Assembly (NCBI RefSeq): GCF_001672975.1
Contig: NZ_LZKU01000100.1
Location: 1 to 32,893 of the forward strand
Source: Mycobacterium sp. 1465703.0
GTDB taxonomy: Bacteria; Actinomycetota; Actinomycetes; Mycobacteriales; Mycobacteriaceae
Direction: 5' to 3'
DNA: 32,893 nt
Part shown: piece after piece, positions 1 to 266 of the stretch
Position numbering within the stretch: position 1 is the stretch's first letter
Layout of the letters: every line of letters starts with the position of its first letter
Position numbers and translations under genes: made by a program
The notes under the pieces: model-generated
What the model was told of the DNA's origin: nothing
Seen by the model: only the letters and a program-made list of their open reading frames with translations
Databases searched by the model: none

Positions 1-77
1 CGTGCCGGTGGTGCTGCAGGCGCTGCTGGATCGGCACGCCATGTTGCGGATGCGCGTGGAGGACGACGGCGTCGGCG
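1..77 (+). repeat. Left terminal inverted repeat, outer arm
   Basis: These 77 bases are the exact reverse complement of 190-266; pairing was followed base by base (position 1 with 266, 77 with 190) and stops at 78/189. The arm encodes the start of the second epimerization domain of the peptide synthetase, here in the direction opposite to the gene. The outer limit is simply the window edge, so the true palindrome may continue. Most likely an inverted chimeric junction at a contig end. Confidence 0.95.
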
Positions 78-196
78 GCTGGTCCCTCGACGTGCCCGAG
101 GCGGGCTCAATACAGGCCGGCGACTGCCTGGAGTCGGTCGACGTGTTGTCCGAAGCGGCACTGGTCGACGCCCGGTCGCGGCTGAATCTCGCCGAC
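2..196 (+). pseudogene. Inverted fragment of the Mps1 second epimerization domain
   Basis: Read on the plus strand, this stretch encodes about 65 residues of an epimerization/condensation-type domain. It matches the equivalent part of the first epimerization domain of the same synthetase: the LLDRHAMLRMRVEDD segment, then GGWSL, a QAGDC motif, and ARSRLNLADA near the end. The first epimerization domain has LLDRHPMLRLRVQDD, GGWSL, QAGDC and ARSRLNVGDG in the same order. It is therefore the true continuation of the synthetase gene that ends at about 190 on the minus strand, shown in flipped orientation because of the fold-back junction. It is not an independent gene, although the plus-strand frame stays open by chance far into the synthetase antisense strand. 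Confidence 0.85.
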
Positions 197-266
197 GCCG
201 TCGTCCTCCACGCGCATCCGCAACATGGCGTGCCGATCCAGCAGCGCCTGCAGCACCACCGGCACG
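190..266 (-). repeat. Left terminal inverted repeat, inner arm
   Basis: This is the inner copy of the 77-bp inverted repeat, in its natural place inside the synthetase gene (minus strand). The 112-bp spacer 78-189 separates it from the outer arm. Coding sense continues naturally from the outer arm into the spacer on the plus strand, not from this arm into the spacer on the minus strand. The spacer is thus inverted relative to the gene. Confidence 0.95.

What the first reader, a model, noticed from the sequence alone, without database searches (positions are those of the whole stretch)
1..266. Left end folds back: mps1 is interrupted by an inverted junction
Positions 1-77 are the exact reverse complement of 190-266. 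The 112-bp spacer carries the true continuation of the epimerization domain but in the opposite direction. The structure reads as gene, then loop, then the same gene backwards. An inverted chimera with a small deletion (as known from multiple displacement amplification and other template switching) fits. A real inverted duplication is less likely. Anyone calling genes here would report a false C-terminus for the synthetase, stopping at 107.
Basis: seen in the sequence. Interest (0 to 1): 0.7.

Follow-up and report, generated by a model that had tools for sequence, protein, structure and literature searches.

The report
Fold-back assembly artefact at contig ends
The mirrored sequence at the start of this likely mycobacterial contig is most likely an ordinary sequencing and assembly artefact, probably from DNA fragments that folded back on themselves: the mirrored arm is exactly 77 bases long, as at most other mirrored contig ends examined in the same assembly, so the apparent end of the peptide-synthetase gene there is very likely false.

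Summary
Another contig of the same assembly, C8, ends with the same 77 bases (190-266) and, read backwards, agrees with window 1-197. So the natural continuation lies in C8, and the start of the window is a fold-back with an 8-nt inverted microhomology at the joint. The window's right end does the same with C22 (arms 32525-32601 and 32817-32893), which is not in the finding given. Of 204 ends examined, 39 fold back, 35 with arms of exactly 77; the 11 plain overlaps found between ends are also exactly 77; 1.37 Mb of fetched interior holds no such repeat. So 77 is very likely the assembler's k, not a biological length. In 77 of 80 loci from relatives the gene runs straight through. Whether library preparation or whole-genome amplification made the molecules is not settled; short loops lean to library preparation. 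The C-terminus at 107 and the N-terminus of ORF 31843-32697 are very likely false.

The parts
1..77 (+). Outer arm: reverse complement of 190-266; terminal 77-mer of the contig
78..189 (+). Spacer: true continuation of the synthetase gene in inverted orientation; same as contig C8 read backwards
190..197 (.). 8-nt microhomology at the inversion joint (agreement with reversed C8 runs to 197; agreement with forward C8 begins at 190)
190..266 (-). Inner arm in natural orientation; identical to the last 77 bases of contig C8 (28961-29037)
107..189 (-). False C-terminal tail and stop of the synthetase ORF (antisense of the gene)
107..7990 (-).
32525..32601 (+). Right-end inner arm (last natural 77-mer)
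32591..32601 (.). 11-nt microhomology at the right-end joint
32602..32816 (+). Right-end spacer; window 32591-32893 agrees with C22's end over 303 bases
32817..32893 (+). Right-end outer arm: reverse complement of 32525-32601
31843..32697 (-). TylF-type methyltransferase ORF whose first 32 residues (32697-32602) lie in fold-back sequence; Pfam match begins at residue 58, profile position 40

Best explanation
The inverted repeat at 1-266 is most likely an assembly artefact: short DNA fragments probably folded back at short inverted repeats and were sequenced, and a de Bruijn assembler (predicted k = 77) likely followed that false branch and started the contig at the reverse complement of the branching 77-mer. 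Shown: the 77-mer at 190-266 is also the last 77 bases of contig C8; C8 read backwards agrees with window 1-197; the same geometry is at the window's right end with C22; arms of exactly 77 occur at 35 of 204 ends examined, these two included. Inferred: the fold-back molecules, their origin in library preparation, and the assembler and its k. No reads were available.
For: Exact arms. C8's last 77 bases equal window 190-266, and C8 reversed equals window 1-197. Right end: arms 32525-32601 and 32817-32893, last 303 bases equal to C22's end. Of 204 ends (102 readable contigs of C1-C144; assembly of 297), 39 fold back, with arms of 77 in 35 and 67, 71, 87 and 219 in the other four. The 11 suffix-prefix overlaps found between ends (22 ordered pairs, lengths 25-400 tested) are exactly 77. 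No exact inverted pair of 77 or more with a loop under 700 in 1,372,573 interior bases (all). Where another contig end has the identical terminal 77-mer (10 of the 35), 9 joints show 5-12 nt of inverted microhomology; random inverted joints at distances of 150-699 bases in the same sequence reach 5 or more in 0.9% of 200,000 draws. 77 of 80 loci from relatives are colinear through the junction and 0 of 80 hold an exact inverted repeat of 30 bp or more. Paralogous modules of the same genome (for example C8:24353-25275) and a same-genus genome (G001:C109:13906-14822) also show the natural order.
Against: No reads or coverage were available, so the chimeric molecules are inferred. Four folded ends have arms other than 77 (67, 71, 87, 219). 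One folded end with a partner (C83 with C73) does not fit the simple geometry: agreement stops at 396, before the second arm at 675. For 25 of the 35 ends with arms of 77 no end with the identical terminal 77-mer was found; partners may lie in unread or N-only contigs. One of these (C9) has its terminal 67-mer 16 bases inside the end of C95. The 130-residue piece of the window's ORF that runs into the junction gave no Pfam match on its own.
Confidence: 0.96

Rival explanations
1. The same fold-back chimera, but made during whole-genome amplification with phi29 polymerase (MDA) before sequencing; this concerns only the source of the molecules, the assembly artefact stays.
For: In one MDA data set 406 of 475 chimeras (85%) were inverted, with complementary junctions of up to 21 bp (PMC1855051, Results section read). 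Nine joints here have 5-12 nt.
Against: In that paper joined segments tended to lie under 10 kb apart, numbers falling off with distance. Here the 35 loops of the 77-base class are 68-597 bases, and for 102 left ends no inverted copy of the terminal 60-mer was met further than 2 kb into the fetched part of the same contig (first match per stretch only; right ends not tested so). The assembly is listed as 100% complete, unlike typical amplified single cells (recalled). An assembler may absorb only short loops, so this is a lean, not a proof.
Confidence: 0.15
2. A real inverted duplication in the chromosome that truncates the synthetase.
For: The sequence as printed reads that way.
Against: Arms of exactly 77 occur at many unrelated contig ends and not in the interior examined. 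The natural continuation exists in C8. 77 of 80 loci from relatives are colinear. Both ends of this contig carry the same defect.
Confidence: 0.01
3. A mixed population in which a minority of molecules carry in vivo fold-back joints at short inverted repeats, and the assembler followed them.
For: Junction microhomology of 5-12 nt is also what template switching in vivo would leave (recalled).
Against: It would have to occur at dozens of loci at once; a preparation artefact does this without further assumptions.
Confidence: 0.02

Closest known systems
Fold-back chimeric reads from library preparation (PDSM model; PMC10908179, abstract and passages seen)
   Same: Chimeric reads joining a strand to its own complement at inverted repeats or palindromes
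   Different: Described there as soft-clipped human reads and false variants; here seen as contig ends in an assembly, with no reads at hand
MDA inverted chimeras (Lasken and Stockwell 2007; PMC1855051, passages and Results section read)
   Same: Inverted joint with an intervening segment and a short complementary junction
   Different: The 35 loops here are all under 600 bases, and amplification of this sample is not documented
k-base overlaps between contigs of a de Bruijn assembly (for example SPAdes with k = 77; recalled, no call)
   Same: The 11 plain contig overlaps found and 35 of 39 fold-back arms are exactly 77
   Different: The assembler and its settings are not stated in any call

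Membership tests
k-mer-locked fold-back assembly artefact | Arm length equal to the overlap length between contigs of the same assembly | tested here: met
   77 in both; 35 of 39 folded ends (others 67, 71, 87, 219) and 11 of 11 plain overlaps
k-mer-locked fold-back assembly artefact | Found at contig ends and not in contig interiors | tested here: met
   39 of 204 ends; 0 sites in 1,372,573 interior bases
k-mer-locked fold-back assembly artefact | Natural continuation present on another contig that ends in the same 77-mer | tested here: met
   C8 for the left end, C22 for the right end; assembly-wide 10 of 35 ends with arms of 77
k-mer-locked fold-back assembly artefact | Chimeric joint at low read depth | not testable with these tools
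   no reads held
Intramolecular fold-back chimera | Short inverted microhomology at the joint | tested here: met
   8 nt (left) and 11 nt (right); 5-12 nt in 9 of the 10 ends with a partner, the tenth not fitting the geometry; 5 or more by chance in 0.9% of draws
MDA chimera | Inversion distances reaching up to about 10 kb | tested here: inconclusive
   loops 68-597, none met beyond 2 kb for 102 left ends, but an assembler may absorb only short loops
MDA chimera | DNA amplified with phi29 polymerase before sequencing | not testable with these tools
Genuine inverted duplication | Gene disrupted in the genome, no intact continuation | tested here: not met
   C8 carries the continuation (846-codon frame from its end; condensation-family match from profile position 47)

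The most novel reading that the evidence does not exclude
The joints record fold-back DNA molecules that form in the living cells at short inverted repeats of this GC-rich chromosome, in enough copies that the assembler walked into them at dozens of loci.
Probability: 0.02. Interest if true: 0.6.

Novelty: not a real feature. Interest (0 to 1): 0.08.

Why it matters
It is a data-quality matter: genes at these contig ends get false termini (the synthetase at 107, the methyltransferase above 32601). A survey of inverted repeats or truncated genes in this assembly would count dozens of false positives (39 among 204 ends examined). Terminal inverted repeats of one fixed length, equal to the plain contig overlap, would be an easy filter for draft genomes.

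Tried and rejected
A real inverted duplication was rejected because arms of the same exact length recur at unrelated contig ends and the natural continuation exists on C8. MDA as the source of the molecules was considered and kept as a rival with lower weight.

Literature: two searches tying fold-back reads to mycobacterial or SPAdes contig ends returned no paper; a broader one listed 10 of 127 papers, seen as a listing only. I make no claim that the effect is unpublished. A search of plasmid records showed, in its five listed rows, only the 190-1000 part of the query on Mycobacterium intracellulare synthetases, about 78% identical; not followed up.

A first comparison of C8's end with window 1-201 failed as exact although BLAST rounded it to 100%; exact agreement is 197 bases, so the microhomology is 8 nt.

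Limits: no call printed the length of C100; I take its right end as a contig end because the window is given as C100:1-32893 and its last 77-mer is also C22's last. Fourteen right ends fetched last are 1431-1591 bases long rather than 2000, so a longer loop there would be missed. Of C1-C144, 42 contigs read as N only and were left out; C145-C297 were not fetched, apart from one locus on C164 that came. The 80 loci are the best 80 of 476, some from the same genome and some from other modules of such synthetases; three had no match to the stretch and were not followed up.

Full report
What is there. Window 1-77 is the exact reverse complement of 190-266 with 112 bases between. The window is C100:1-32893 of an assembly of 5,922,017 bases in 297 contigs. 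Two MMPL-family transporters, an FkbM-family methyltransferase and a nucleotide-sugar dehydrogenase score above NCBIfam cut-offs nearby; glycosyltransferase-like and GDP-fucose-synthase-like matches stay below theirs (2 of the 10 proteins scanned had no match).

Where the gene really goes. Contig C8 is 29037 bases long. Its last 77 bases are window 190-266, and its reverse complement agrees with window 1-197 before the first mismatch. So the window's first 189 bases are C8 read backwards, and the natural gene very likely passes from window 267 through 266-190 into C8. A minus-strand frame of 846 codons is open from C8's end, and its first domain matches the condensation family from profile position 47 on; the short 130-residue piece on the window's side had no match of its own. 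In 77 of 80 loci from named relatives one match crosses the arm/spacer boundary on the gene strand, and none of the 80 loci holds an exact inverted repeat of 30 bp or more. The last 27 residues of the window's ORF match the same loci on the antisense strand (26 of 26 matching loci at E <= 1e-3; 58 of 60 at E <= 1). The stop at 107 is therefore very likely false.

The right end does the same. Window 32817-32893 is the reverse complement of 32525-32601, and 32591-32893 agrees with the end of contig C22 over 303 bases. The ORF 31843-32697 on the minus strand is a TylF-type methyltransferase whose Pfam match begins at residue 58, profile position 40; its first 32 residues come from the fold-back.

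Assembly-wide test. I fetched both ends of the readable contigs among C1-C144: 102 contigs, 204 ends; 42 contigs read N only (counts). Thirty-nine ends fold back (arms of 16 or more searched for). Arms are exactly 77 in 35 and 67, 71, 87 and 219 in the other four. Six contigs fold at both ends. Plain overlaps between ends, tested from 25 to 400 bases, number 11 and are all exactly 77. In 1,372,573 bases of interior there is no exact inverted pair of 77 or more with a loop under 700, and one site of 30 or more (all). A fixed length shared by plain overlaps and fold-back arms is the mark of a de Bruijn k-mer (recalled). A branching 77-mer (here 190-266) gets a second incoming edge from fold-back reads; the contig that takes this edge begins at the reverse complement of that 77-mer, so the arm has length k by construction (inference; SPAdes with k = 77 is the recalled example).

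The joints. For 10 of the 35 ends with arms of 77 another contig end with the identical 77-mer was found. In nine the two agree 5 to 12 bases past the start of the second arm (5, 5, 6, 7, 8, 8, 11, 11, 12); the tenth, C83 with C73, does not fit. With a looser search by the terminal 67-mer, 11 of the 39 folded ends have a partner, at the end of another contig each time. Random inverted joints at distances of 150-699 bases in the same sequence reach 5 or more in 0.9% of 200,000 draws. The molecules therefore likely joined by pairing at short inverted repeats. The 35 spacers are 68-597 bases, median 119, about the size of short-read fragments. For 102 left ends no inverted copy of the terminal 60-mer was met beyond 2 kb in the fetched part of the contig (first match per stretch only).

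Source of the molecules. Library-preparation chimeras at inverted repeats (sonication) and palindromes (enzymatic fragmentation) are described in PMC10908179 (abstract and passages). MDA gives mostly inverted chimeras with junction complementarity of up to 21 bp, tending to join segments under 10 kb apart (PMC1855051, Results section). The short loops and the listed 100% completeness lean to library preparation; reads would decide.

Verdict. The feature is very likely not biological. The added points are the place of the natural continuation, the second fold-back at the right end, and the fixed 77-base length across the ends examined.

Noticed in passing
window 32525-32893: The right end of the window is a second fold-back of the same kind, shared with contig C22; it very likely gives the methyltransferase ORF 31843-32697 a false N-terminus.
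   Followed up: yes
G000 contigs C27, C54, C81, C82, C100, C127: These six contigs fold back at both ends; 39 of 204 ends examined fold back in all.
   Followed up: yes
G000:C83 left end with C73 right end: Arms of 77 with a 597-base loop, but the partner contig stops agreeing after base 396: a more complex joint than the others.
   Followed up: no
L084 (G000:C59), left end: Fold-back arms of 219 bases with a 109-base loop, in a contig with several synthetase-like matches; the longest arm seen.
   Followed up: no
window 9456-15441 and downstream: Two adjacent MMPL-family transporter genes beside the synthetase, then methyltransferase, glycosyltransferase-like and nucleotide-sugar genes, as in a glycopeptidolipid locus (recalled).
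   Followed up: partly
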